A stretch of 64,000 nt of DNA, taken from assembly GCA_038503065.1 (NCBI GenBank), contig JBCAMK010000009.1, positions 124,001 to 188,000 of the forward strand, given 5' to 3'. Each line of letters starts with the position of its first letter. The stretch's first letter is position 1. Of the stretch, positions 2,737 through 16,596 are shown piece by piece. The translations under genes and the position numbers were made by a program. The notes under the pieces were generated by a model that searched no databases, had not been told where the DNA came from, and was given only the letters and a program-made list of their open reading frames with translations. The DNA is from Paragyromitra xinjiangensis (lineage: Eukaryota; Ascomycota; Pezizomycetes; Pezizales; Discinaceae).

Positions 2737-2949
2737 ATGATCCAGCAGAGCATTACACAGACGCAATCGGCGATAGAAAAGAGGAATGTATTTATTATTC
2801 TATTTATCATTGTTTTAGCGTTCACCCTTATGATTCCCCTGTGGTTTTCTGGCACCAGTAAGAGATATACGCAGTATTCTCAGATTATGTTAGGACTTTC
2901 GTTGACACCGTCCCCAAATGTACTACAGGTGCCGGGGTTAATCTGTTGA
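2737..2949 (+). CDS. Small hypothetical membrane protein (70 aa)
   Basis: From the ATG at 2737 the frame encodes a short polar helix, then a hydrophobic segment of about 20 residues (FIILFIIVLAFTLMIPLWF, near residues 20-39) and a polar tail. The tail runs into the left arm of an inverted repeat, so the C-terminus may be fortuitous. It lies 200 bp downstream of another small ORF on the same strand; a shared spliced transcript is possible but I could not find a convincing splice pair. Treat as doubtful. Confidence 0.25.
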   Translation: MIQQSITQTQSAIEKRNVFIILFIIVLAFTLMIPLWFSGTSKRYTQYSQIMLGLSLTPSPNVLQVPGLIC

Positions 2950-3157
2950 CACCCGGCGATGGTAGCAGTGCGAGCACTCAACTCTCTCACCCGCTCGGTG
3001 AAGCTGGGAAGATAGCTACCTACTGCAAAAGCATAAGAGCCATATTTGGAGTGTTTAATTAGGTGAGTTACAGACTTTAATTGAAGCTTGAGATGAATTA
3101 TGGTATGCATTTACTCTAGTAGGCGCACCGCCACCACCGCCAGGTGTCAACAGATTC
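2939..3157. repeat. Inverted repeat pair next to the KDZ insertion
   Basis: AATCTGTTGACACC at about 2939-2953, plus some 20 bp beyond it, matches the reverse complement of about 3122-3157. Differences are mainly A/G transitions. The spacing of about 220 bp suggests a decayed foldback element. Its right end lies only a few bases from the target-site duplication of the large transposon. Confidence 0.5.
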
Positions 3158-3160
3158 TCC

Positions 3161-3168
3161 CTGGCATC
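3161..3168. repeat. Target-site duplication, left copy (CTGGCATC)
   Basis: Direct 8-bp repeat of 16589-16596, immediately outside the left terminal inverted repeat. Confidence 0.92.
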
Positions 3169-3405
3169 CACCTATGTAGTACACCCCTTCCATTCTCCCG
3201 AATGGGCGGCTGCGTTTCATGCCCCCATTTGAGCGATATCTAGGGCTCTGGGCTTTTGGGCATTGCCCGCCGCCTGCCCCACCAAATCGATCCTAACTAA
3301 GATTTTTTTTAGAAATAGCGACCACTTCTGAGCACAAATAGAGGGGTTTCAAGAATCCCCTAAGCAGGCTATTCGGGCGTACATCTATTTTTTTTAATCA
3401 TTTTT
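3169..3405. repeat. Left 237-bp terminal inverted repeat
   Basis: Matches the reverse complement of 16352-16588 with only two substitutions (one in the A-rich part after the T8 run, one in CCCCTAAGC versus CCCCTTAGC). Similarity stops abruptly after AATCATTTTT at 3405. Confidence 0.95.
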
Positions 3406-3466
3406 CAACATTGGATAGTTGGGTGACCCCCGCGTGGCGGGATCCAAACGGCGGGAAGCATCAACT

Positions 3467-3792
3467 TATACATGCGTACTTGCTTATACAGCTCTGTACA
3501 CGCCCATATTGACCCATACTGCCTTTCCACAAGTGAAAAACCTTTTGTGAAGCAATAAAGTGCTGGATACAAATGATACAGACTCGTACAGTCATATACT
3601 ACACTATATAGGTTCATACGAGCTTGATGAGCAGCCTCTAAGATAAATCCTCAGCAATTCGAGGTGCTGAGGGGCAACTACAGATAACACGATCCCGTAC
3701 CTGTATATATGGAGCAGTACACTATTGATTCTGTTCTAAATAGTAGCAATACGGGCTTATATAAGTCCGTACTCTCTAATACAAGATGGTAT
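3467..3792. repeat. 10-bp-phased TAC/TAT motif arrays, left subterminal cluster
   Basis: Three arrays follow the left terminal repeat: one beginning at 3467 with about six TAC/TAT steps, one from about 3557 with six, and one from about 3750 with four. Successive TA steps are 10 bp apart (one 9-bp interval), so they lie on one face of the helix. The same pattern fills the opposite end of the element. Confidence 0.8.
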
Positions 3793-4017
3793 TTGAAGCG
3801 TCACGTGACAAATCCTAACCCCGCTCTAGACCACGTCGGCTATATCAACACACATAAGACCCAAATCCACCACCTCATTCTTATTCTGATATCCCTTCCA
3901 GTTCAATTCTAGGAGAGGCTCCAGAGCACTCTCTCCTCCTATCTATATATATGCAATATCGTATCCACATTGCCGCACTTCATTCACTGCACAACCACTT
4001 CAGGCACTATCAATCGA

Positions 4018-4461
4018 TTATAAACCCATGAATATTCGATAATCAGTCCGAATATCTACCACCGGAGTTGCCGCTGTCCAGTCAAAACCATAATACGCGC
4101 CTATCACCAACCAATCTGCCATGGTGGTCGTGGCGATGTTTGGCCTGCGCCAGGGCGCTACTGGGCAGGGTACTCCAGTCCTGAGGTTAACCATCTTGAT
4201 GAAGCCATTGCGAGGTCCCGGCACCCCAGCAGGAAGCCCTGTGTTTCTCTGCCGATTAATTCGTCTAGCTTGGTGGTTGTAGGTTCTGTGGGATATGTTA
4301 GCTCTGGCCTTGGGAAAGGTGGAGAACGTTACTTACTCGTTCCGTGCATACACTGCAGTTAAGGCTGGCGATCTATACCTGTTGAGCACGGCAATCGTGT
4401 GCTTCTCAGGTGTAGTAGCTGGTCTTAGCAAGTCGATAGGCCTGACAGGGTTTGCAGCCAT
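4018..4461 (-). CDS. Hypothetical 130-aa cargo protein of the KDZ element
   Basis: Two exons on the minus strand. Exon 1 is 4461-4337; a 51-nt intron has a GTAAGT donor and a CACAG acceptor; exon 2 is 4285-4018. Phases match (125 nt plus 268 nt) and the joined frame is open for 130 codons. The protein starts MAANPVRPIDLLRP and has a basic middle (QARRINRQRN). The C-terminal half is rich in Trp, Ile and Tyr (MADWLVIGAYYGFDW) and it ends RIFMGL. I recognise no family. It lies between the left motif arrays and the alpha-SNAP-like remnant, inside the transposon, so it is cargo or an accessory gene. The clean splice signals make it more credible than a chance ORF. Confidence 0.55.
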
Positions 4462-4812
4462 GTTGGTTTAACTTTCGTATGTTGTGTTTTGTTCTGATAT
4501 ATGTTTCTACCATTCCATTCGAGGCTACAGGGACGCTGATTTATACCCGCTTTAGTTCAATTGACTTACTTGCTTTCCAAGATGTTTCGAAGGGAAGGGT
4601 TTCAAGCCAGCTCCGAGTTATTTCGTTCATCATATGCGATGAGCCCTTTATTCCTTTGTTTCCTTTGGAGTGGATTTAAAGTTTGGGATAAGCGCCGTGG
4701 GGTCGACCGCGATAGCCAAAATGGTATGTCAATTGTTTCAAAAGAACAAGAGAACTCCCTTGTTCTATAGGCTCCGGTGTTAGATACTCCAGAAGGTGGC
4801 ATCTAACTCAAC

Positions 4813-5590
4813 CTAGCTTTCTCGTGCCATTTTGTGGCAGTGGTTTCCTAGAGCTCTATTACTGTTAACTCCAGGCGACGGGGGATGTTTCCACTTCATC
4901 AAATTATTACCCGCAGAGCTTCTCACAGCTCTATACTTCTCGATTGCCTCTCCATACTGCTCCGCGAGCGCCCACAGTCTGCCACTTTCAGAAGCATCTT
5001 GTTCGCTAGTGATTTGGATCGCCCTGGGTATACCACCAAGTGCTAGCTGTAGTAGCTTTGTGAGGTTCTGCTGGTGCGTCACTGCTCTTCGAAAGTTCCC
5101 CTTGAGTGTGTAGTGACTGATGGCTTTCTCGAGGATCTAGCTTTGCAAGGTTCTGCTGGTGTGTCGCTGCTCTTCGAAAATTCCCCTTGAGTGTGTAGTG
5201 ACTGATGGCTTTCTCAAGGATCCGTGTAGCAATTGAAGAGTCTCTTATGTATCCTAGCTGTAGTAGCTTTGCGAGGTTCTGCTGGTGCGTCACTGCTCTT
5301 CGAAAGTTCCCCTTGAGTGTGTAGTGACTAATGGCTCTCTCGAGGATCCGTGCAGCAATTGAAGAGTCTCTTATGTATCCTAGCTGTAGTAGCTTTGCGA
5401 GGTTCTGCTGGTGCGTCACTGCTCTTCGAAAGTTCCCCTTGAGTGTGTAGTGACTGATGGCTTTCTCGAGGATCTAGCTTTGCAAGGTTCTGCTGGTGCG
5501 TCACTGCTCTTCGAAAGTTCCCCTTGAGTGTGTAGTGACTAATGGCTCTCTCGAGGATCCGTGCAGCAACTGAAGAGTTTCCTCTTTTGT
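4813..5590 (-). pseudogene. Decayed alpha-SNAP (Sec17)-like fragment with amplified 42-aa repeat
   Basis: Read on the minus strand, the DNA contains several copies of a 126-bp unit encoding a 42-aa block that runs AISHYTLKGNFRRA, THQQNLAKLLQLG, YIRDSSIATRILEK. This resembles the alpha-SNAP helix pair in which a tetratricopeptide-like repeat reads roughly 'AI..YT.KG.FRRAA.HQQ.LAELYE'. The terminal unit continues into a segment (LALGGIPRAIQ..., then ALAEQYGEAIEKYRAV and SSAGNNLMKW) that follows the order of Sec17 helices, including the NNLLKWS-type motif. Two of the repeat units share the same internal deletion of about 41 bp, which breaks the frame. There is no proper start and the end is non-homologous. 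Function is probably lost. The assignment rests on motif order recognised by eye. Confidence 0.55.
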
Positions 5591-5626
5591 ATGCTTGATG
5601 ACATTACTCTATCACTGTCAGGAGTG

Positions 5627-5845
5627 TACAAGTCTGTACACATTGGTATTGCGTCGTATTAGCCTATACATCTCTAACTTCGTCAGGCAATATCACCCGG
5701 CCTGCGAGGCATTCAGGTCACTAAGCCGCTGTCATACAACTCCGTACACGCCTATACCTCACCATACTGATTTGTATTTATATGGCTAAACCTGGGAGTG
5801 TAGAAGATCCTTGGCATACATTACCGAACAGTATCAGCTTATACC
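5627..5845. repeat. 10-bp-phased motif arrays between cargo genes
   Basis: Arrays from 5627 (five TAC/TAT steps at exact 10-bp intervals) and from about 5726 (five steps), then a shorter one near 5816-5850. They occupy the gap between the alpha-SNAP-like remnant and the 3' end of the HMG-like gene. Confidence 0.75.
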
Positions 5846-5952
5846 ATGCTTTATTCCCACAAATCGACCCTGGCTCAACCACATCTTGCGAAACAAAATA
5901 CTGCTAACCAGTTACAAAAATCCCTCCCCCCAAATGGGAATTCCACCTGCGA

Positions 5953-6999
5953 TCAAACAGAACTATGGAAACTAAGCGACCTCCTCTGTAGCGCTTCGAT
6001 CACTGCCTCGACATCACAATTCCTAGTAGATATTAACTTTTGCTCGATCTTAGCAGGTTCATCGGGCCATCCTTCTTCCGCCGACGGCGTCTTCATAGCT
6101 ATCTTCCTAATAGTAAGCATTTCCATGAACTTTCCTTGGCCTCGAGGTAGTTTTTGAAGCTCCGACACGCCCGTCTTGCTTGCCGCATCTGTACGTTGAT
6201 GACTCTGGTTAGATTTCTCGATCAAAGAAAGGAACAATCGACTTACTGATGCAACTTAGGAGTAAATCCCTCACCTCCGTGCGCCGAAGGCTGCGGCGGT
6301 CAGGCGTCTGAGTCTGAAGTGACTTGAGCTTCTCCAACATCTCCCCACCGTTGCAAAAAGAGCGGAAGTTATCTTCACCGTATCCGGCGCTTGTCATAAG
6401 CGCTACAAAAGATTCGGCGTGGCCGTATGTGACTCTAGTTTGAGCTTTAACTCCTTTCGAGGTGGGGCATGCCATGAAGATTATATTGACTTTTTGCCGG
6501 GCGACATAGTCGATCTGTGAAGAGTTAGTTGAGAGGCCAAGGATATTCAAGGCATTGGATCTAGAATTACCGATCTCGTAACAGCACGAAGAAGTTTGCC
6601 AAGGGTCTTATCCTCTGATTCGATTGTCGTCGATGTATTGGCCGACATGATCCGGGCACGTTCATCGTACTCCTGCTTCTTCTCCGGGTTCTTGTATACG
6701 GTTGAAACAAATTGTGCGTATGCCCCAGACAAGTCTTTCCCTCCAACGAGCGCATCTGCTGGAGCATTCTTCTTTTCCTCTCGGAGCGCCAATTGCCAGC
6801 CCGTAACATTCGCTTTCCGGATTCGTGGGGTTATCCCAGGCATTTGGAATCCGGCCATTGCGAGTACTCCTTCAGTCGTCCATGCAGCGTTCTTGCGAGC
6901 AATCTGCTCTGCTTCAAGGGCTATTTTGTCGACAAACTCAAGAATTAATGGATGCTGGGAATCTTCAGGATTAACCTGAAGATTATGTGGTTCAGACAT
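5953..6999 (-). CDS. HMG-box-like accessory protein of the KDZ element
   Basis: Three exons on the minus strand: 6999 to about 6570, to about 6250, and to 5953. The introns have GTAATT/CACAG (with a CTAAC branch) and GTAAGT/TACAG boundaries and keep the frame. The product is about 310 aa. Residues 60-125 read like a divergent HMG box: NVTGWQLALREEKK, then GKDLSGAYAQFVSTVYKNP, then EKKQEYDERAR. After it comes a second domain (KLLRAVTRSIDYVARQKVNI..., then YGHAESFVALM). As I recall, this order, HMG box followed by a domain with a hydrophobic core and a conserved YGH-like turn, occurs in HMG proteins encoded near KDZ/Plavaka transposons of fungi. A role in DNA binding or bending during transposition, or in controlling element genes, is inference. 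It is divergent from the coiled-coil gene starting 214 bp away. Confidence 0.6.
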
Positions 7000-7212
7000 A
7001 TGCCAAACGGTGGTGATTTACGAAGGCGAAGGATGAATAGATTATATGGATATGCCTATATTCCCCTCTATAATGTGCGCTTAGGGTTAGGGCGTGTACA
7101 AAACCGGATTAGCGCCTTGAGGAGGGGGTATTAAGCTTTGCTAAAGTTTGGTAGCGAGACGCAACCTTCCTTCTTCCTCCCACCCCCCCGCCACCACTAG
7201 TCGTCGCCAACG

Positions 7213-8737
7213 ATGAGTTCCATTAGCTCCGTCCGCGCTACTCCTAACCCTCTAGGCGAATATCGCAAGAAAATCCTCGGAGCCTTCGCCCAAGGGATAC
7301 AAGGGCGTCACCAAGCTCTAGATGACGTCACTGACGGAGAGTGGCAGCCAATCCTCAGAAAGGTCTCTCCTTTCACAAAAGCGCAATGCAAGGTAATAAG
7401 ATTCTCCCCAAAATTGATTCTTGCTAAGCGTGGTGAATATTAGGAGTATCTGGAACTCACTTTCGAATTTCCTTACAATACAGGCCACAGCGCACTAACG
7501 GCTTCCGCACTACGTAAGTTGATGATCTTTTTAGTGGGTTGCTAGCTATTAATGATACTAGATGCTTTGAATCGGCATACAGAAAGAGTCGCGCCTAGCG
7601 ACCATAGTTCCTATCCCCTACCTCCCGTTGCCGAAGATGAGGATCCTCAACGTGGGTTAGGTGATATTAATGACGAACCTTCGACTCTTGGGCATAGGGA
7701 AGCCCCAAGTGAGGAGCAACTAAAACATAAGCAGCTCATTGACGAGGGGTATCAGAAGCTCGAGGACGATCGCCTTGCGTTTCAGAAGGAGCGTCTGCAG
7801 CAGCTCGAGAAGCATGTCCTTGATGAGGAGAAGTTGAGCGCAATGGATCAACAGCTTAAGAAACAACAGTTTGATGTCGAGGAGAGCCGTCAACTTTTGC
7901 AGAAACAGTGCGAACTTTTGCATCAGGAGCGTCTTGCCTGCAACGCAAGGCAGCGGGAAGAAGAAGAGAACCTGAAGAGGCAACGCCTCGAGCTTGATAT
8001 CCTCAAGGCGGAACTAGGTAATGAGAATCGTCAAGTTAATGACGATCGTAATGAGCTAGAGCTCAAGCTCTCTCAGTTGGTGGCTCTAGAGGAGAGACTT
8101 GGGAAGCAACGCAACCTTGACGAAGAAAAGGTCCGCCTCCAAGAGGAGTTGATACATCGTAAGGAGGATGAATTGAAGCAACAGCAAAGAGCAGTCGAAG
8201 AGGCGTACGATAAGATCGATTCTCAACGTGCTCAACTGCAGGCTGAGCGTCAGCAGTGGGAGAATGATCGCAATCAGAACCAGGGTAGGTTGACGTCAGT
8301 TGATACATATATATATGAATAGTTGAACTAAACTATAGATCATAGACAGCAACGCAGAGCAATCGTCAGTCGAGCAAGGTCCTTTGGATGTAGCTCGTTT
8401 TTTGGAAGCCTTAGGGCCTGAGGGCCTACAGGATATGGTACGGAGCCCGATCGACCCTACGTTATACAAGCATCAACACTAACAAACCTAGATCAATCTG
8501 CTTTACAAGGGAACGACGAAGGCGAAAAGAAAAGGCTCTAGCTTTAGGCCTGATAGCTCCTCCTCGCCTCTCAGTCAACTGAAGGTCTGGAAGGTTCAAC
8601 GTGACGATATGAATAGAAAGGCTTGTCAACGGAGACGAGCTGCGCAGGCCTCTCGCCAGCAGGGGGGGCATGATAGCCAAATGACTCCCGGTGAGTCTTT
8701 AACTCTAAGGCGTAGCACTAGGTTTACTGCGAAATAG
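7213..8737 (+). CDS. Coiled-coil protein encoded by the KDZ element (436 aa)
   Basis: Five exons fit by splice consensus and phase: 7213-7392, 7444-7513, 7562-8284, 8346-8437 and 8492-8737. Total 1311 nt including the stop. The N-terminal 90 residues form a small domain of unknown type (GEYRKKILGAFAQGIQGRHQ..., then TAQCKEYLEL-like). Residues about 130-320 are an uninterrupted Glu/Gln/Lys/Leu-rich coiled coil. The C-terminus is basic (KAKRKG, NRKACQRRRAAQ), suggesting nucleic-acid contact or nuclear import. No family recognised. It starts 214 bp from the divergently transcribed HMG-like gene, so both may share a promoter. It could dimerise or tether partners of the transposase; that is inference. 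Confidence 0.7.
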
Positions 8738-8750
8738 GTGGTGGATTGGG

Positions 8751-8814
8751 GGAGGGAGGGGAAGGGGGGAGGGGAAGGGGGGAGGGGAAGGGGGGAGGGG
8801 AAGGGGGGGGGGGC
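8751..8814. repeat. G-rich 13-bp minisatellite
   Basis: Four near-perfect copies of AGGGGAAGGGGGG follow 14 bp after the coiled-coil gene stop codon, ending in a longer G run. One strand is almost pure purine with many G4-G6 runs, so it could form G-quadruplexes or triplex DNA. It may act as a transcription stop or replication barrier. Confidence 0.8.
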
Positions 8815-8956
8815 TTGATATCATATTCTCTTACGATTGGGGCTATTTCTTAATATATTTTTAGCTTGGAGTATCGGTTAGCATAAGCTCTTGTTTATTA
8901 GTAAAGATAAGAATACCATGACCATATGACGAGGGCTTGCTGCTGAACGTAATTAT

Positions 8957-9868
8957 ACACTTCCGTACAGAAGGATACTGACGCATACAAGCAAATACCA
9001 GAAACTGTGAACCTGTGACGATATATATATCAGATAATAGATATATCGACTAAATATCTAAAGGGTTTCCATATATGCCGTATAGATGAACAGAGTTGAA
9101 TAAGATGAGTAAAAGCCGGAGCTGCGCCAACAGTCTAGTATGTCTGTACGCACCTATACACATCTGTATAACTTGGTACAGAGGTGTACAGTCGCTTATA
9201 CGCCAGATAGTCGAAATGATTTATACAAGTCTGTACAGACAAATATTCCAATATATAGAAGGGTACGGGTAGCCTGAATGAGTTGGCAATGCATATACTG
9301 ACGGATACAGATCTGTACATACCAATACGGCCGGGTACAAACAAAGATGAGCCCACAACAGAATTTATCTATACACGCCTGTACAGATGTATACAGATTA
9401 ATATAACGGTGTACAGCATCTATCGGCTGAAAGAGAGGGCTCTGCCTGTACAGATTTGTACAGGTTTGTACAAATTTGTACAGCTGTGTACAGGTGAAAG
9501 TGTGACAGGGAGTAAAACTTCTCTATACACGTCTGTACAGGATGATACAAAGCAATATAGGAGTGTACAGGGACTTTTACTTAGTGAGTAGTTTGTACAT
9601 GTAAGTACAAATTTGTACATAACAATACAGACGAGTACAAACAAAAGTGGGCCTGACATCAGAATATCTCTATACACGTCTGTACAGACATGTACACCTA
9701 TATACAGTAGAGTACAGCTAAATCACTCGCCCGCATATCTATACATGCTAATATAGACGAGTTGGCTCATTACCCAGATATGCAGAAAAATATGGTCCCT
9801 GCTAAAGGCATCTGTATCTATCTGTACAGGGAAATATAGTTGGATATGAGCGCATACAAACTAACGGA
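8957..9868. repeat. Central field of 10-bp-phased TGTACA-like arrays
   Basis: About ten arrays, each of about five (range four to six) TAC/TAT steps at exact 10-bp intervals, start near 8957, 9132, 9223, 9287, 9373, 9447, 9524, 9594, 9672 and 9820. The clearest, 9447-9492, is five TGTACA hexamers separated by 4 bp. Arrays are separated by about 30-50 bp of unrelated sequence. Units are near-palindromic, so orientation is not obvious. There is no gene from 8738 to 10435. Confidence 0.85.
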
Positions 9869-10333
9869 TCCGTGTATGAATTATCGATCAATCAATCAAT
9901 CTTCCTACACCCACGAATTATCACTCGACCGATCCGACCACCATCCAACGTATCTCGGGCCTCAGGAAGAGGAAAAATATTTGCAGCATACGAGATAATA
10001 GCTAGCCTTCAGAGCATCTGATTTAGGGGTTTACTTGGAAAATATAGCTCAGCGTTGGGTGTTGTTGGGTATCGTGGGTCTATAAATGTTGTTGTGGGTA
10101 GGTCATCAGCGTTAATTCATGATTCCAACAACCAATTAAAAGAGAAAAATCCCAGCTTGCTTGAAAAGGCTATTAGTATACGGCAATATGGATCTAAAGG
10201 GATTCCAAGTTTATCCCAGGCGTTATTCTAATTATTATGAATATTTTGGGGCGGGGGAATATTAATGCTCAGCGGCCAAAGAATGGTTAAGTGTGGTTGA
10301 TTGTGGTTAAGTGTGGTTAATTACTATCCTCTA

Positions 10334-10378
10334 TACACGTCTATACAGTAGAATACAAGGGTATATGATGATGTACAA
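10334..10378. repeat. Phased motif array at the 3' end of the transposase gene
   Basis: Five TAC/TAT steps at 10-bp spacing (TACACGTCTA, TACAGTAGAA, TACAAGGGTA, TATGATGATG, TAC), ending about 60 bp beyond the transposase stop codon. Confidence 0.75.
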
Positions 10379-10435
10379 TTACGTAGAGATAGTTTCTTAG
10401 AACATCGTGCATATAGATAACGATAAGACAAAAAA

Positions 10436-13400
10436 TCACAAATCCATCCTGTAATCGCTATTGCCATCAATATCAACGTCATCATCGGCATATGCATCCA
10501 GGCCATCGTTATCGCCCTCATCGTCAGCCTCACGCGCGTTCATAAACTCTCGTGTTTCCTCTCTTACCAGTGCTTCTCCCAAATCCTCCATAAGATCACC
10601 ACCTTCGATCCCTGATGGCAAATCGTCAGCATTGGAGTCATCATCGCTCATATCATTATCACTATCCATCAATCCTTCCTCGGCTTGGTCGCCTATAATA
10701 TCGGCGTGATTGAAACCATCAACTCTGCCAGCCCTTTGAAAAGGAGCATGTCTTTCGACTGTTAGCATGAGCAACGCCGACTTCACTGTTTGCTCTAAGC
10801 CTGAGAGATCGTTCCTTAAATCTTCTGTCAGCAGGTTCAAATTTGGCTTGACTTTGAGCATAGACTGGATCATTCGCAAGCGTGAGAAGAGTTTGGCTTT
10901 TAGATGCGATGGCGATAGATAAGAAGCCTCTGGCATGAGATCATTGAAGTTCTCCAAGAGGGTGCAGATCAGAAGAGATTGCCGGAGTAGCCATGCCCCC
11001 ATTCTTTGAGCATGGAGCCCTAAACGTTCTATCTCCTCCTGTGCTCTTTGAATGCGATACATTGCGAGTATTCCTTCCCTGACGTCAATCAATGCAGCCC
11101 AGTCAGACCTCGTAAACATTCGATCCAGATCCCACACCTCGTCGTTTGATATACCGTTTTTCTTCAGCTCTTCTACACTAAGCTTTCGAGGTGGTTCAAA
11201 ATTATCACGGCTCGTGAGTTTTAGGATCTCTCTGTTGTAATCGGAGACCGTCGTGTCTAAGGCCTTCCATCGGGAGTTAATCTGTGCCTTGAACCTTGTG
11301 GATTGCTTGTTTCCACGAATACGACGAGTGATGGTCGATATCTCCGCGGCACGCGTGGTCACAATCCGAATTATTTCAGTCTGAAGCCCATGGAGAGTCC
11401 TCAAGTGGTAAGAATTCTTGTATTTGGTGTGATACTCTCCACCTTCCCGCCAGTCCTCACGTGTATCTCCACACTGTGCCATCAAATCATTGGTCTTCTT
11501 GACTACTTTGGATCCATTCCAATGTTGCGATGGATCAGGGATTGGTTTTCTATTCAAACAAATAGTTAGTAAGTATATTGCTACTCTAGCCTCCGTGCCA
11601 GGCAGTCGGGAGCCATCACTTATATGTTCTGTAATACTCTTCTTGATCCGCCGCTTGCTGCATAAGATACTCTAAATCTACTCGGATCTCCGGCCTTTGC
11701 TCTCCATTCTTCAAGACCCGCGGAGGTAATACTGTCCCAATTAATGTGTGTAGGAGAGCTTCGCTTTCTGATATCACACGGAGGGCGTTGCGGAGCCTTT
11801 GTGTAAGAATAGTTCCCATTCTCTCTTTGAACGCCCTCGCTGTATATATGCCATAAGAGTCAATTCTCTGAGTTCTTCTCGGTGCTGAAGATACTCTTCC
11901 GGATGCAACAAAATGGGCCATCCTTGACCAATCATATTCGTTTTCTTCGCCTACCATGAGCCCCCAGCCTGAAGATCGGATGAGATTACATAGGGTAAAG
12001 CAACTCATTCCGTGTCCATAAATATGGAATCTTCCTATTCTTGCTTGGATTCTCTCGGCCTCTGCAGGCATCAACTCTTTTAGAGCCGGTCCGAAAACAC
12101 ATGCCACGTCGTAGCACAAGCGGAGCATCTTAATATCTGGCAGCTCTAATAGAACGTTCTGAAGCAGCGTGGTGACATGGGTTTGTCTTTCTCCTGTGAA
12201 GATATTGAGATAGCGTAAAGACGTCCCATGGAGACACACCAAGCCGACCAAGCCTTTCTCATCGAAGTTTTTGGCTCCAGGAATAGCTCCAGAACCACCA
12301 TCGTCAACTTTTGACCATTCTTTAGTTGCTTTGAATAGGTGGCCGCAAGCGCTCTCGTTGCCGCTCTTCTCTCCGGCCCGCCGTTCTGAAGCAAGAGCAA
12401 AATCCCTCTTGCCATTATCTACGAATAGTTTAGTCGGAAGAACTTCAAACTCGCAGGGGTTAACATCCTTGAATCGACCATGCTGCATGTTTCCGTCTAC
12501 GGACATGGAAACAGTCTGATCAGCGGGAAAGGAGGAAAAGTCAAAGCAGGGTGGGCAGATATTTGCTAATGACTCTTCTCTCCAGTCTGATCGCCGGCCA
12601 CCCACTTGCGCTACCTCTGTATCCCCCAGAAGCGTGTCTAATATGGTGTTGATCTTATATTCCACGGCTACCCAGTGATGGTATGCATTCCTAAACTAAT
12701 TGGAATAGAGACTTAGAATATATATCATTGCGAGTAGAGTTGTAGCCTTACCTTAATAGCGAAATGAGGTATAACTTTCAAGCCCTTTAGCTCCAACTGC
12801 TCTCGTAGCCCTTCCGCCCAAGCTGTTTTCGATATCGATCCCCTAACACTCTGGAGATGGTAAAGCTGGAGCACCTCAACTGCAAATAACGTCTGGGGCC
12901 TAACTGGGGTGGATGGAAACATTCCGCGATTTATCATTTGCGCGCACTTTTGACCGCATACACAATACTGTACCATCTCTTTTGTAAGAGCTATAACTCC
13001 TTGTTAGAACGTTCTTAGGAGCTAAGCTGATAGTTGGCTTACAAGCAAACGATATCATATTGACCTCTACGTCGTAAAATCCCTTGCAGTCACAAGGAGT
13101 CACCTCTTCAAACCGATGTAGTTGATAAGAGGCCATCCATGCTTCAATACGCTCCCAATTCTTAGCTAACGCCATTCGAACCCCATCCTTTTTCCTCTTC
13201 CTTTCCCCTTTCACAGTCCTTAGGATACGCTGAACAATATCCTCCCAATCACCGCCATCTTCATCATCCTTATCATAATCGTCGGCTCCATATCCATGAC
13301 CTCCCTCCTCAAACATACCATGCTGCCACGAAGAGCCCAACCTGCTATCATATTTCAGGAAATGCGTATCTCCAATTGCTTTAAGGCCTCTGTTATGTTG

Positions 13401-13538
13401 ATCAGCCTGCTTATGGCTTAGATTTCGAGATGAGCTGTGCCACCTTCCGTCTGGCTTATATCCAGCTACTCCAATTGATGTTATCTTCTTGTGAGACTTC
13501 TTAGGCTTGACTGTATATTTCTGTGCTCTCCGCGCCAT
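10436..13538 (-). CDS. KDZ-family transposase (974 aa)
   Basis: Four exons on the minus strand: 13538-13043, 12990-12752, 12695-11620 and 11549-10436. The phases agree and sum to 975 codons. An N-terminal cysteine cluster (CDC near residue 150, then YCVCGQKC) is followed by GMFPSTPVRPQTLF, typical of the CxC modules attached to KDZ transposases. The RNase-H-like core shows CPPCFDF, MSVDGNMQHGRFK (Asp about 312), LRLCYDVACVFGP (Asp about 441), FHIYGHG and GWGLMVGEENEYDW (Glu 495-498), i.e. an intact D-D-E set, then RVSSAPRRTQRID. The C-terminal 350 residues are helical, ending in a very acidic tail (many Asp, about residues 890-970). It should cut and paste this element, whose ends and 8-bp duplication are intact. 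No frameshift is seen, so the enzyme may be active. The start chosen is the first ATG in frame; TTG codons upstream were ignored. Confidence 0.9.
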
Positions 13539-13684
13539 CTCGAAACTGGAGCGGTTGAAGAAGGTTAGAAGAGGGTTAAACAGCTTATGACGTCGCCCAC
13601 ATAGAATAAGGGTTGGGGTTGCGGCTTTTCTTGGCGAAGCGAACGACCACCGGTGCTTAGGCCTTCTCAATCAGCAACCCTCCA

Positions 13685-13722
13685 TACATCTCCATACAAA
13701 TCAATACAGCAACATACAAGAC
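13685..13722. promoter_or_regulatory. Phased motif array in the divergent transposase promoter
   Basis: Four TAC steps at 10-bp spacing lie in the 283-bp interval between the transposase start (13538, minus) and the 182-aa gene start (13822, plus). If the arrays bind an element-encoded protein, this copy is placed to control both promoters. Regulatory role is inference. Confidence 0.5.
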
Positions 13723-13821
13723 TCAGCACCACCACAAGCACCATCACATCTTGTATGTATAGGATATCCCAAACTCCAGGTGGTGCATATGTCTGCTAAC
13801 TCTATCTTACTGCAGCTCAAC

Positions 13822-14554
13822 ATGCCTAAACGAAACGCCGACGGAACACCCAGAGGGTCTGCTCAGGTTTGTCGCTCACCGCCCTTAGAGATTGCAGAGC
13901 TTACCTCTCCATAGTTGATCGTTGTTCAAGAAGCCAAAGAGAATAAATCCCGCAGCAAGGCTGCTCTCGAGCGGAAGATTGCGTTGGACTGGGCTAGTAA
14001 AGCCGTCAACTCTGGAGCTGAAGCGATGAACAAAGATACCGAGAGGGATGTCGTCTTCACGCAGATGGCTAGCAGGAGTGTATTATTTCCCTTCCCTCCT
14101 AATAAACGTTCATATTCCCTGGTTTCCGCAATCACCGCTAACGTGGAGTAGGCTTATGTGATGGGAGAGGCCGAAGGCATTCAAATCAGGGAATTCGTCT
14201 TTGACCGCGGCCTCACTGGGACCGGACTCTATAATAGGGCTCTTCTGCAGGAATTGTACCAAAGCCTTGGGCTGGGCGAGGACGACGTTGCTCGTAAGGA
14301 TAAAGTCAATGTCAGTTATAATCAAGGAAATAAGGCACTCGAGAACTGATGGATTCGTGCTAACTCTGAGATAGACCAAGGTCGCGAATACGTACCGCGT
14401 CGTCAGAGATCTCAAAGCAATGATGGATACTGACGAACCGGATGTTGTCGCCCGTAGGTTGGCTAAGCTCTGCAAAGACTTCGCCTATGGGAAGGAAAAC
14501 GGCTTGTTTGAGCTGGAAAAGGCTGGGGTTAAGTTGGAGGATTATTCTGGCTAG
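13822..14554 (+). CDS. Hypothetical 182-aa cargo protein, divergent from the transposase
   Basis: Four exons: 13822-13866, 13915-14079, 14152-14310 and 14375-14554. All junctions are phase 0, with CTAAC branch sites in introns 2 and 3. The protein starts MPKRNADGTPRG. It has a basic helix (KENKSRSKAALERKIALDW), a central part with AYVMGEAEGIQIREFVFDRG, and ends in LEKAGVKLEDYSG. Composition suggests a soluble all-helical protein. No family recognised. Because it shares a 283-bp bidirectional promoter with the transposase, co-expression and a role in transposition or its control are plausible but unproven. A poly-G run (about 14 nt) follows the stop codon. Confidence 0.65.
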
Positions 14555-14800
14555 GTTAGGGCTGCGGGGGGGGGGGGGTTTCAATTCTTATATCTGTTCA
14601 CTCTGCCGGGTTAGATTAAGATGATATACTACTGCTTTTGCTGGTGCTACTAGTGAACTTAGCGTAAGACTATGGTGACTACAAAACAACCCTTAGCAGA
14701 TGCTTACGCTCCATACGTGTACCAATCACCCAGCTACATTACTACCAAACAGCCGATACTGCCCCTGAGATTAGAATATCAACTATTCAGCTATAAGGTC

Positions 14801-15504
14801 TTATATATAGAAACCTACCAATTCTTGTGCTAGATTCTGCGCCTCCGTGATTAGCAGCAGCCTTGCAGAGCTCTTGACTTCATCACTCTCGCCCAGCGCC
14901 CCAAGGGATCTGCGGAGGCACTGTATTTGCTGAATGAGACTATCGTAAGCATCTGCAGTTGCCTGCCTGGCGTTGATAGCATCAATTTGGGCCCTCGTAT
15001 ATGTTTTTCTAAGGTTGCGGACTGCCTGCTATATATAGGAATTCAGTCAGAGCCTCGTTCTTAAAAAAATACAGCTAAAGAGTGGGCTGAATTTACCTGG
15101 ACCTGAACGTCTGATAGCCCTGTCGACGCACTCGCCTGGTCTCTGAGGGTCTTTGTGCGAGCTCTTCCATCCGTCATACCCTTTTCAAATAATCCCTGTA
15201 TCACTGCACGTTGCTCTGCAGTATGATTCCGAGATCTGCTCCTCCGCGAAGGAGTTTCGGGAGTTTCGGGAGTGACAGAAATATCCTTAAGAGGGGCAAC
15301 AGCCTGCTTCAAGGCTCTTAGCTTCTCTTTTCTTCTTCTCCTAGAGAGGCGATGGAGAGGACTTCTGTCCTCGAACGTTAGGCGTGGGCCCAGAGTAACC
15401 TTTGGCAGACACACATCTTCGTAGAAATCAATTCCTTGATCATGCTGGTCGAATATAGGTGGAGATGATGGCGGGGACTGCTCAGGCGCTAGCTCTGAAC
15501 TCAT
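14801..15504 (-). CDS. Homeodomain-like DNA-binding protein of the KDZ element
   Basis: Two exons: 15504-15097 and 15028 (or 15025)-14801, joined across a GTAAAT...TATAG intron in phase 0. The product is about 210 aa. After a Pro/Ser/Asp-rich N-terminus and a basic patch (LSRRRRKEKLRALK), residues about 100-150 read HTAEQRAVIQGLFEKGMTDG, then RTKTLRDQASASTGLSDVQV, QAVRNLRKTY. This follows the three-helix homeobox pattern, with 'LSDVQVQ.AVRNLRK' in the place of the recognition helix (compare L..RQV..WF.NRR). The canonical Trp-Phe is replaced by Ala-Val, so the fold is a divergent match. A transcription factor or an end-binding accessory protein would both fit. It converges on the 182-aa gene, 246 bp away. 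Confidence 0.5.
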
Positions 15505-15586
15505 TCTTACTTGATTAGCGTGAGTTCGTGCCTGTGGGGGAGATGGAGTGACGTTGACAACACGGTATCACCATCTATCAATCTAT

Positions 15587-16275
15587 ATCCAGAGATATCG
15601 AACAGTACAGACTTGTACAGTGTCGTTTACGCGAATTGGTCGAAGGCATATATAGCGTAGCGGTGCCTACATATACGTCAGAAGTGCATCAGGAAAACCC
15701 AGGTGGATATGGTAAACAAACAATACAAGCCTGTACATATCTGTATAGGCTCATTGCCAAGATATCCAAACCACACCCAATGTGCTAGAGCTCACACTAT
15801 ACTGGTCTATACACGTCCGTATATGCCTATATCCACCCATATGGATTTCTATAAGCGGCGCTGGCGGCTTAGAGAAGGGGTGAATAAGGAGAAGAGTGAT
15901 ACTGGCCTGTACGTTGATGTATTGAACAGTACAGGCGCATATAAAATAACAATAATCCTTGGCTAAGCACCTCAAGAAGTCGAAATGGTATTGACCCAGT
16001 ACTAAGCTATACACACCTGTACTCGCCCGTATAAGCAAATACACAATTACAAAACTTAATTGCAGGAAAATCAATACGCGGCCCATATCGAGTTACATTA
16101 ATCAATACACCAGTACACATCTGGCTAGTCAATCCCAGCAGTATATAAGGTGTGCTAGTGGTACAGGTTCATATGCTTTCGTACAGGCCCATACAAGCCA
16201 AAACAAAAACTAGTTTGCGTTTGCTTAGTTTATGGCTATATCGAACCGTACAGCTCTGTACGGGCTTGTATAGGC
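15587..16275. repeat. 10-bp-phased motif arrays, right subterminal cluster
   Basis: About eight arrays run up to within 80 bp of the right terminal repeat: near 15587, 15731, 15801, 15910, 16006, 16070, 16160 and 16234. Most show three to five TAC/TAT steps with 10-bp spacing; the one near 16070 is irregular. The 15505-16351 interval holds no gene. Confidence 0.8.
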
Positions 16276-16351
16276 TGATACATTCACTCAACCCAAAGAC
16301 GTGAAATTGCTCGCTACCAACCCCCGAAAAACACACCCAATTCCACCCACC

Positions 16352-16588
16352 AAAAATGATTAAAAAAAATAGATGTACGCCCGAATAGCCTGCTAAGGGG
16401 ATTCTTGAAACCCCTCTATTTGTGCTCAGAAGTGGTCGCTATTTTTAAAAAAAATCTTAGTTAGGATCGATTTGGTGGGGCAGGCGGCGGGCAATGCCCA
16501 AAAGCCCAGAGCCCTAGATATCGCTCAAATGGGGGCATGAAACGCAGCCGCCCATTCGGGAGAATGGAAGGGGTGTACTACATAGGTG
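16352..16588. repeat. Right 237-bp terminal inverted repeat
   Basis: Reverse complement of 3169-3405 at 235 of 237 positions; ends ...CATAGGTG at 16588. Confidence 0.95.
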
Positions 16589-16596
16589 CTGGCATC
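16589..16596. repeat. Target-site duplication, right copy (CTGGCATC)
   Basis: Identical to 3161-3168 and directly adjacent to the right terminal inverted repeat. Confidence 0.92.

What the first reader, a model, noticed from the sequence alone, without database searches (positions are those of the whole stretch)
3467..16275. About 25 arrays of TAC/TAT motifs at exact 10-bp spacing inside the KDZ element
Throughout the non-coding parts of the transposon there are short arrays, each usually of five units, in which a TAC/TAT core (best form TGTACA) repeats every 10 bp. Example: five TGTACA at 9447, 9457, 9467, 9477 and 9487. The sequence between units and between arrays varies, so phasing rather than sequence is conserved. 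Arrays cluster near both ends, in the 1.7-kb centre and in promoter intervals; I saw none outside the element. A same-face helical array suggests cooperative binding by a multimeric protein (transposase or one of the HMG-, homeodomain-like or coiled-coil products), or a designed bend or nucleosome signal, since 10-bp TA periodicity favours wrapping.
Basis: partly seen in the sequence, partly recalled or inferred. Interest (0 to 1): 0.92.

Follow-up and report, generated by a model that had tools for sequence, protein, structure and literature searches.

The report
Five-unit 10-bp DNA arrays in transposon
A large fungal jumping gene carries some twenty copies of a 44-letter landing strip made of exactly five evenly spaced marks, one per turn of the DNA helix, most likely docking sites for one of its own proteins.

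Summary
The 13,420-bp element (3169-16588; 237-bp terminal inverted repeats, 8-bp target duplication, KDZ transposase) holds 23 runs of at least four R-T-A-Y units at exactly 10 bp. Twenty have exactly five units, none six. There are none in the 50.6 kb of window outside or in 260 kb sampled from the same genome; 500 dinucleotide shuffles average 0.004. The core is palindromic, with purine-pyrimidine-biased spacers. In an old internal duplication of about 300 bp, TA is kept in 40 of 40 bases against 52 of 100 spacer bases. The outermost pentads both lie exactly 307 bp from the termini. All 20 lie between genes, on gene models drawn by eye.

Best reading: a fixed-length module for a cooperative, probably element-encoded protein making five two-fold contacts on roughly one helix face, used at the ends and inside for transposition and/or element-specific regulation. 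The binder is not identified. A designed bend or nucleosome signal is not supported. Closest analogues: VANC-bound VANDAL repeats, hAT subterminal repeats, bacterial parC.

The parts
3161..3168 (.). Left target-site duplication CTGGCATC
16589..16596 (.). Right target-site duplication CTGGCATC
3169..3405 (+). Left terminal inverted repeat, 237 bp, 99% complementary to the right one
   Evidence: (I1)
16352..16588 (-). Right terminal inverted repeat
   Evidence: (I1)
3476..3519 (+). Pentad 1 (5 x RTAY at 10 bp), first base 307 bp from left terminus; a TTAT unit 10 bp before it makes six if only TAY is asked
3576..3619 (+). Pentad 2
3697..3720 (+). Three-unit partial array
3749..3792 (+). Pentad 3
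5626..5669 (+). Pentad 4
5734..5777 (+). Pentad 5
8955..8998 (+). Pentad 6
9146..9189 (+). Pentad 7 (first copy of the four-pentad duplication)
9223..9266 (+). Pentad 8
9295..9338 (+). Pentad 9
9371..9414 (+). Pentad 10
9448..9491 (+). Pentad 11, five perfect TGTACA (second copy of the duplication)
9525..9568 (+). Pentad 12
9595..9638 (+). Pentad 13
9672..9715 (+). Pentad 14
9814..9857 (+). Pentad 15
10333..10376 (+). Pentad 16
13684..13717 (+). Four-unit array between the transposase 5' end and the divergent gene at about 13822
   Evidence: gene starts read
15585..15618 (+). Four-unit array (a fifth, CTAT, lies 10 bp upstream)
15723..15746 (+). Three-unit partial array
15799..15842 (+). Pentad 17
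15899..15942 (+). Pentad 18
15999..16042 (+). Pentad 19
16161..16194 (+). Four-unit array
16238..16281 (+). Pentad 20, last base 307 bp from right terminus
11616..12665 (-). KDZ transposase, catalytic exon (PF18758, E 3.5e-22)
10436..11557 (-). Probable 3' exon of the transposase gene (open frame, no Pfam match)
12900..13670 (-). Probable 5' exon(s) of the transposase gene (open frame, no Pfam match)
6209..6999 (-).
7214..8737 (+). Coiled-coil accessory gene with basic C-terminus (exons by eye)
13822..14554 (+). Small accessory gene of unknown family (exons by eye)
14810..15504 (-). Accessory gene with homeodomain-like look (by eye), no Pfam support

Best explanation
Each pentad is one binding module for a single kind of cooperative protein complex, most likely encoded by the element itself, because such modules were found nowhere else that was examined. 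Shown: 20 modules of exactly five RTAY cores at exactly 10 bp, bounded at about 48 bp, between genes (models by eye), with cores kept while spacers drifted. Inferred: each palindromic core (fuller form YYY-RTAY-RRR) is contacted by a two-fold symmetric unit such as a dimer, and five such units sit side by side on roughly one face of the helix and touch each other, so that specificity comes from phasing of a weak 4-bp core. Inferred: bound at the two ends (307 bp in) the complex helps bring or hold the ends together, and bound at the internal intergenic blocks it marks or regulates the element as a whole, for example activating its genes or keeping host silencing off, as TE-encoded VANC proteins do on tandem motifs of VANDAL elements.
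For: Strict five-unit length: 20 of 23 runs of at least four, none longer; 0 in 50.6 kb of window outside and 0 in 260 kb of own genome; shuffles mean 0.004. A homology search of the own genome with the central block finds only itself. Unit symmetry: R fractions 1, 0, 1, 0.76.69.75.28.35.30 along R-T-A-Y-N6 over 80 units. Module edges: of 50 flank columns only -2 and -1 reach p 0.001 or less; +44 has p 0.011; -10, -9 and +58 lie at 0.02-0.04, about what 50 tests give. Purifying pattern: in the ~300-bp duplication (score 225 against 121 +- 13 when all but the cores and one base each side is shuffled) TA 40 of 40, R/Y class of flanking bases 40 of 40, spacer identity 52 of 100. In the C6 relict, aligned core bases 30 of 31 identical, spacers 33 of 38, TIR 215 of 233, other bases 97 of 125. 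20 of 20 pentads in the 32% of the interior judged non-coding. [quoted passage not shown] the chance of this match was not computed).
Against: No binder is identified; no recognised DNA-binding domain was found in the accessory proteins. Only one full element could be read, so conservation rests on an internal duplication (both copies were picked for being intact pentads, which inflates core identity) and one decayed end, in which pentad 1 has a 4-bp insertion before it and lost unit four to a 1-base deletion, and pentad 2 is cut short. Function at ends and inside is inference. The net duplex twist over 40 bp is about 3.79 turns with the (recalled) parameters, so the five units drift by about 77 degrees and are only roughly on one face unless binding overwinds or wraps the DNA.
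Confidence: 0.68

Rival explanations
1. The pentads are only subterminal-type sites of the transposase itself, used to assemble the transpososome, as hAT subterminal repeats are used by Hermes; internal copies are decoys or autoregulatory.
For: Outermost pentads at exactly 307 bp from both termini; both ends have several (3 left, 4 right, plus partial ones). Hermes has five STR copies in the first 55 bp of each end and its authors stress exact phasing (PMC10368747, passages).
Against: 13 of 20 pentads are internal (5626-10333). Pentads score better in one polarity, 19 of 20 forward at both ends and inside, instead of inverting with the ends. Part of this is strand composition: linkers alone 16 of 20, and with 8-bp flanks only 16 of 20. 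The nearest pentad is far from the terminus.
Confidence: 0.2
2. A DNA-structure signal: built-in bend or a strong nucleosome, because 10-bp TA steps favour wrapping.
For: 10-bp TA phasing and R-Y steps half a turn away. Array starts often 76-77 bp apart (7 of 23 intervals), roughly half a nucleosome.
Against: Mean wedge-model bend 8.3 degrees against 9.5 with shuffled spacers, 7.5 +- 0.9 fully shuffled and 7.2 for window 44-mers; 0 of 20 above the 95th percentile of the latter; the period is confined to RTAY and absent for YTAR, the usual flank of nucleosomal TA steps (recalled). Exactly five units and sharp edges are not expected.
Confidence: 0.07
3. Partition- or tether-like site: a parC-like filament that links the element to host chromosome structure or holds copies together.
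For: Formal likeness to parC: direct ~10-bp iterons each bound by one ParR dimer, DNA wrapping a superhelix (PMC5016525, passages).
Against: An integrated transposon needs no partition; no ParR/RHH match in the element frames scanned.
Confidence: 0.05
4. Neutral debris of 10-bp tandem duplication (slippage), or pairing bait for homology sensing in RIP.
For: A different 10-bp-step repeat (TGGTTAAGTG-like) lies at 10284-10322 (D19), so 10-bp repeats can arise here; RIP senses spaced short homologies (PMC4858203, passages).
Against: Spacers of units vary while cores are strict, five is the limit, and cores outlived the duplication. RIP senses matching between two repeats over hundreds of bp, at 11-12 bp in the first study; the 2016 passages also report that other spacings, 8-10 bp among them, can work beside a longer weak homology, so period alone does not exclude this.
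Confidence: 0.05

Closest known systems
VANC-bound tandem motifs of Arabidopsis VANDAL elements (YAGTATTAY; AGTTGTMC for VANC6)
   Same: Short motif arrays in non-coding parts of a large TE, specific to that TE family, beside a dedicated TE protein (PMC5735166 and PMC10398659, passages).
   Different: VANDAL is Mutator-like (recalled), in plants; no exact 10-bp register or five-unit count was stated in the passages read; no VANC relative was sought here.
hAT subterminal repeats bound by BED domains (Hermes STRs); En/Spm TnpA motifs (recalled)
   Same: Multiple short sites near both ends, multimeric binder, phasing matters (PMC10368747, passages).
   Different: Here most arrays are internal, units are grouped in fixed fives, polarity does not seem to invert, transposase is KDZ.
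Plasmid parC/ParR and met-box/MetJ operators (the latter recalled)
   Same: Short boxes at about one helical turn, one dimer per box, DNA wrapping (PMC5016525, passages).
   Different: Bacterial, single locus; no RHH protein recognised in the element.
KDZ transposons, e.g. Cryptococcus KDZ1 (~11 kb, 241-bp TIRs, 8-bp TSD)
   Same: KDZ catalytic domain, long TIRs, 8-bp duplication (PMC12810828, passages; here 13.4 kb, 237 bp, 8 bp).
   Different: 'Subterminal' and 'tandem repeat' do not occur in that paper's main text, and 'subterminal' does not occur in PMC12730594; the sequences of those elements could not be examined.

Membership tests
KDZ DNA transposon | KDZ catalytic domain | tested here: met
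   PF18758 E 3.5e-22, 79.6 bits against cut-off 26.6
KDZ DNA transposon | TIRs and 8-bp target-site duplication | tested here: met
   237-bp TIRs, CTGGCATC on both sides
KDZ DNA transposon | N-terminal zinc-chelating CxC domain | tested here: inconclusive
VANC-type anti-silencing target array | Motif arrays in non-coding parts across the TE | tested here: met
   20 of 20 pentads non-coding on by-eye gene models, ends and centre
VANC-type anti-silencing target array | Bound by a TE-encoded protein that removes silent marks | not testable with these tools
   needs binding and methylation data
Subterminal transposase sites | Sites confined to, and mirrored at, the two ends | tested here: not met
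   13 of 20 internal; polarity not mirrored (moderate evidence), though outermost distance is mirrored
parC-like iterons | ~10-11 bp tandem boxes | tested here: met
   exact 10 bp
parC-like iterons | Cognate RHH/HTH centromere-binding protein | tested here: not met
   no such Pfam match among the 13 element frames or typed proteins scanned (7, 6); single-exon and by-eye models, so a miss is possible
Nucleosome-positioning sequence | 10-bp periodicity of bendable steps in general, YTAR-type flanks (recalled) | tested here: not met
   only RTAY clearly periodic, no clear excess bend

The most novel reading that the evidence does not exclude
A quantised cis-module new to eukaryotic mobile DNA: a fixed pentad of palindromic 4-bp cores, one per helical turn, that nucleates a defined five-dimer nucleoprotein complex encoded by a KDZ element, giving the element a self-recognition mark at its ends and between its genes. 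Specificity would come from counting and phasing instead of from a long motif.
Probability: 0.4. Interest if true: 0.82.

Novelty: new variant of a known kind. Interest (0 to 1): 0.68.

Why it matters
KDZ is a large but biochemically little studied transposon superfamily (as far as recalled), and how such elements recognise themselves is not known to me. A strict five-unit, 10-bp module is an unusually clear and testable recognition code: synthetic arrays of 3 to 7 units and 9 to 11 bp spacing against a handful of candidate proteins would settle it. If the binder also acts on silencing, it would be a fungal counterpart of plant TE anti-silencing systems.

Tried and rejected
Orientation by EM: two-orientation model barely better than all-forward (588 against 583). 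KDZ relatives with readable DNA: none confirmed in viral contigs, genome contigs or plasmids; metagenome scans were capped at zero and not tried, so arrays in relatives could not be examined although 45 protein matches exist, counting the window's own protein. Accessory proteins: the three searched are single copy in the own genome; the two searched in the protein collection each found one 99% match and no wider family. Structure of the HMG-like exon: pLDDT 43, not used. Literature: eight searches listed no title or abstract that reports such arrays; only open-licence PMC papers are held and only the listings and the passages named in the report were seen. Static bend and nucleosome readings tested and not supported. 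One search failed on a file name and was repeated.
Full report
WHAT WAS CHECKED. The window is G000:C9:124001-188000 of a 48.2-Mb, 22-contig assembly. The host was not identified. The element spans 3169-16588 (13,420 bp), with 237-bp terminal inverted repeats (99%) and the 8-bp duplication CTGGCATC on both sides. An exon at 11616-12665(-) matches the KDZ transposase family (PF18758, E 3.5e-22). It is the only KDZ match found in the genome. TIR-like pieces remain at C19 (93% over bases 1-213), C6 (90%) and C10 (43 bp).

THE ARRAYS ARE REAL. TAC/TAT shows 5.6-fold excess at lag 10, 4.7 at 20 and 3.6 at 30 inside the element, against 1.04, 0.93 and 1.13 outside. All 24 plus-strand runs of at least four lie inside; periods 7-9 and 11-15 give none. 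Requiring the palindromic core RTAY gives 23 runs of at least four: 20 of exactly five, 3 of four, none longer. Two more have three units. Outside, there are 0 runs of at least four in 50.6 kb of window and 0 in 260 kb from 26 stretches of the same genome (six beside TIR relicts or the window, twenty at a fixed place on contigs 1-20). Runs of at least three occur there 1 and 4 times. 500 dinucleotide shuffles of the element average 0.004 runs of at least four, maximum 1. With the looser TAC/TAT motif one run of four was seen among the first six stretches (L008). A homology search with the central block (9140-9860) finds only itself in the genome. This does not exclude diverged pentads elsewhere, since no pattern or profile search of the genome was made.

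ANATOMY OF A PENTAD. Over 20 pentads the units read R-T-A-Y then a spacer biased R-R-R-Y-Y-Y (R fractions .76.69.75.28.35.30 over 80 spacers), so the unit is roughly YYY-RTAY-RRR, symmetric about the TA step. Bias stops at the edges: of 50 flank columns only -2 (C/T) and -1 (T) reach p below 0.01, +44 (A) has p 0.011, and three others lie at 0.02-0.04. The strongest form is TGTACA (five of five at 9448). Leave-one-out scoring prefers the plus orientation for 19 of 20 pentads (16 of 20 with 8-bp flanks). Part of that is strand composition: downstream linkers alone give 16 of 20 with less than half the score (47 against 108), and unit-order shuffles average 42 and reach 106 at most in 200. Of 1000 random flips 0 reach 19 and 2 reach the summed score. 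I read this as moderate evidence for one polarity throughout.

SPACING AND PLACEMENT. The list holds 24 arrays: the 20 pentads, the three four-unit arrays and one of the two three-unit arrays (3697 was left out). Among its 23 start-to-start intervals 77 bp occurs five times, 76 bp twice and 100 bp three times. [quoted passage not shown] No probability was computed for that match. I set the non-coding intervals by eye from open frames, knowing where the pentads were; stop-free frames of 60 codons or more that cross pentads, such as 9259-9591(+) and 9420-9722(-), were taken as chance. On these intervals 20 of 20 pentads fall in the 32% of the interior that is non-coding (binomial p 1.5e-10, not corrected for the duplication or for this choice). 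The main block lies between two converging genes, not in a promoter.

CONSERVATION. The four pentads 9146, 9223, 9295, 9371 and the next four 9448, 9525, 9595, 9672 are an old tandem duplication of about 300 bp: local alignment score 225 against 121 +- 13 (maximum 156 of 300) when all bases but the cores and one base each side are shuffled. Across it, in-register pentads keep TA in 40 of 40, R/Y class in 40 of 40 flanking positions (33 identical), and only 52 of 100 spacer bases (76 in the same R/Y class). Both copies were chosen because they are intact, so this overstates constraint. The C6 relict keeps aligned core bases in 30 of 31, spacers 33 of 38, TIR 215 of 233, other bases 97 of 125. 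The count was stopped at 3601, where its homology ends inside pentad 2, so 8 of the 40 core positions lie beyond it; one more is a gap. Its first pentad has a 4-bp insertion before it and a 1-base deletion that removes unit four. A relict need not be functional; it does show that arrays predate this insertion.

MECHANISM. The strict count, palindromic core, one core per turn, sharp edges and confinement to this element point to a protein complex of fixed size with five two-fold contacts. The weak 4-bp core means that specificity must come from phased cooperation. Presence at mirrored distances near both ends suggests a part in end recognition; presence between genes suggests regulation or marking of the whole element. 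All of this step is inference. No binder was found: Pfam scans of open frames and hand-joined accessory proteins gave only KDZ and a SNAP fragment above their cut-offs. PDB sequence searches found nothing convincing: for the homeodomain-like piece the best match was ATP synthase subunit b (E 0.015), with engrailed fourth at E 0.76, and the HMG-like exon had two weak matches to RNA polymerase subunits. The one structure model was poor. The homeodomain-like gene next to the right-hand arrays and the transposase's own N-terminal region are the first candidates; this is a guess.

RIVALS. Transposase-only subterminal sites do not explain 13 internal pentads or the apparently unmirrored polarity. 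A bend or nucleosome signal is not supported, with recalled step parameters. Slippage debris does not explain strict cores with free spacers. RIP-related pairing was considered because RIP senses short spaced homologies (PMC4858203, passages); it needs matching between repeats, not a motif, and only one full copy of this element was found here.

COMPARISON. VANC proteins bind short motifs that form tandem repeats in non-coding parts of VANDAL elements and induce loss of methylation (PMC5735166, PMC10398659; passages). Hermes binds phased subterminal repeats with several BED domains (PMC10368747; passages). ParR dimers each bind one parC iteron and the DNA wraps them (PMC5016525; passages). Cryptococcus KDZ1 has 241-bp TIRs and 8-bp duplications (PMC12810828; passages). 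A survey of fungal TET-bearing DNA transposons, KDZ among them, does not use the word subterminal (PMC12730594; outline, abstract and passages). None of the passages read describes five-unit 10-bp modules.

VERDICT. A new variant of TE-specific binding arrays, with an unidentified binder and a clear test.

Noticed in passing
window 4813-5603 (-): The element carries a SNAP/Sec17 (alpha-SNAP) gene fragment with tandemly duplicated 126-bp units (PF14938, E 3e-7 and 1.1e-8), looking like a captured and rearranged host gene.
   Followed up: partly
window 10284-10322: Another repeat with 10-bp steps and a different motif (TGGTTAAGTG-like, three overlapping 19-nt copies) ending 10 bases before pentad 16 (D19).
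   Followed up: no
window 2930-2972 and 3124-3166: 43-bp imperfect inverted repeat (84%) in the DNA just left of the insertion; its right arm ends inside the target duplication (I2).
   Followed up: no
window 8743-8808: G-rich tandem repeat with 13-bp steps just after the coiled-coil gene (D14).
   Followed up: no
L009 (C6:2025226), L008 (C19:1000479), L011 (C10:126578): Decayed ends of related elements; on C6 25 of 52 substitutions are C>T or G>A, possibly RIP.
   Followed up: partly
P0002, P0046, P0047: Other public assemblies hold an 83% transposase relative and 99% copies of two accessory exons, so near-identical element genes exist elsewhere, perhaps in the same species.
   Followed up: no
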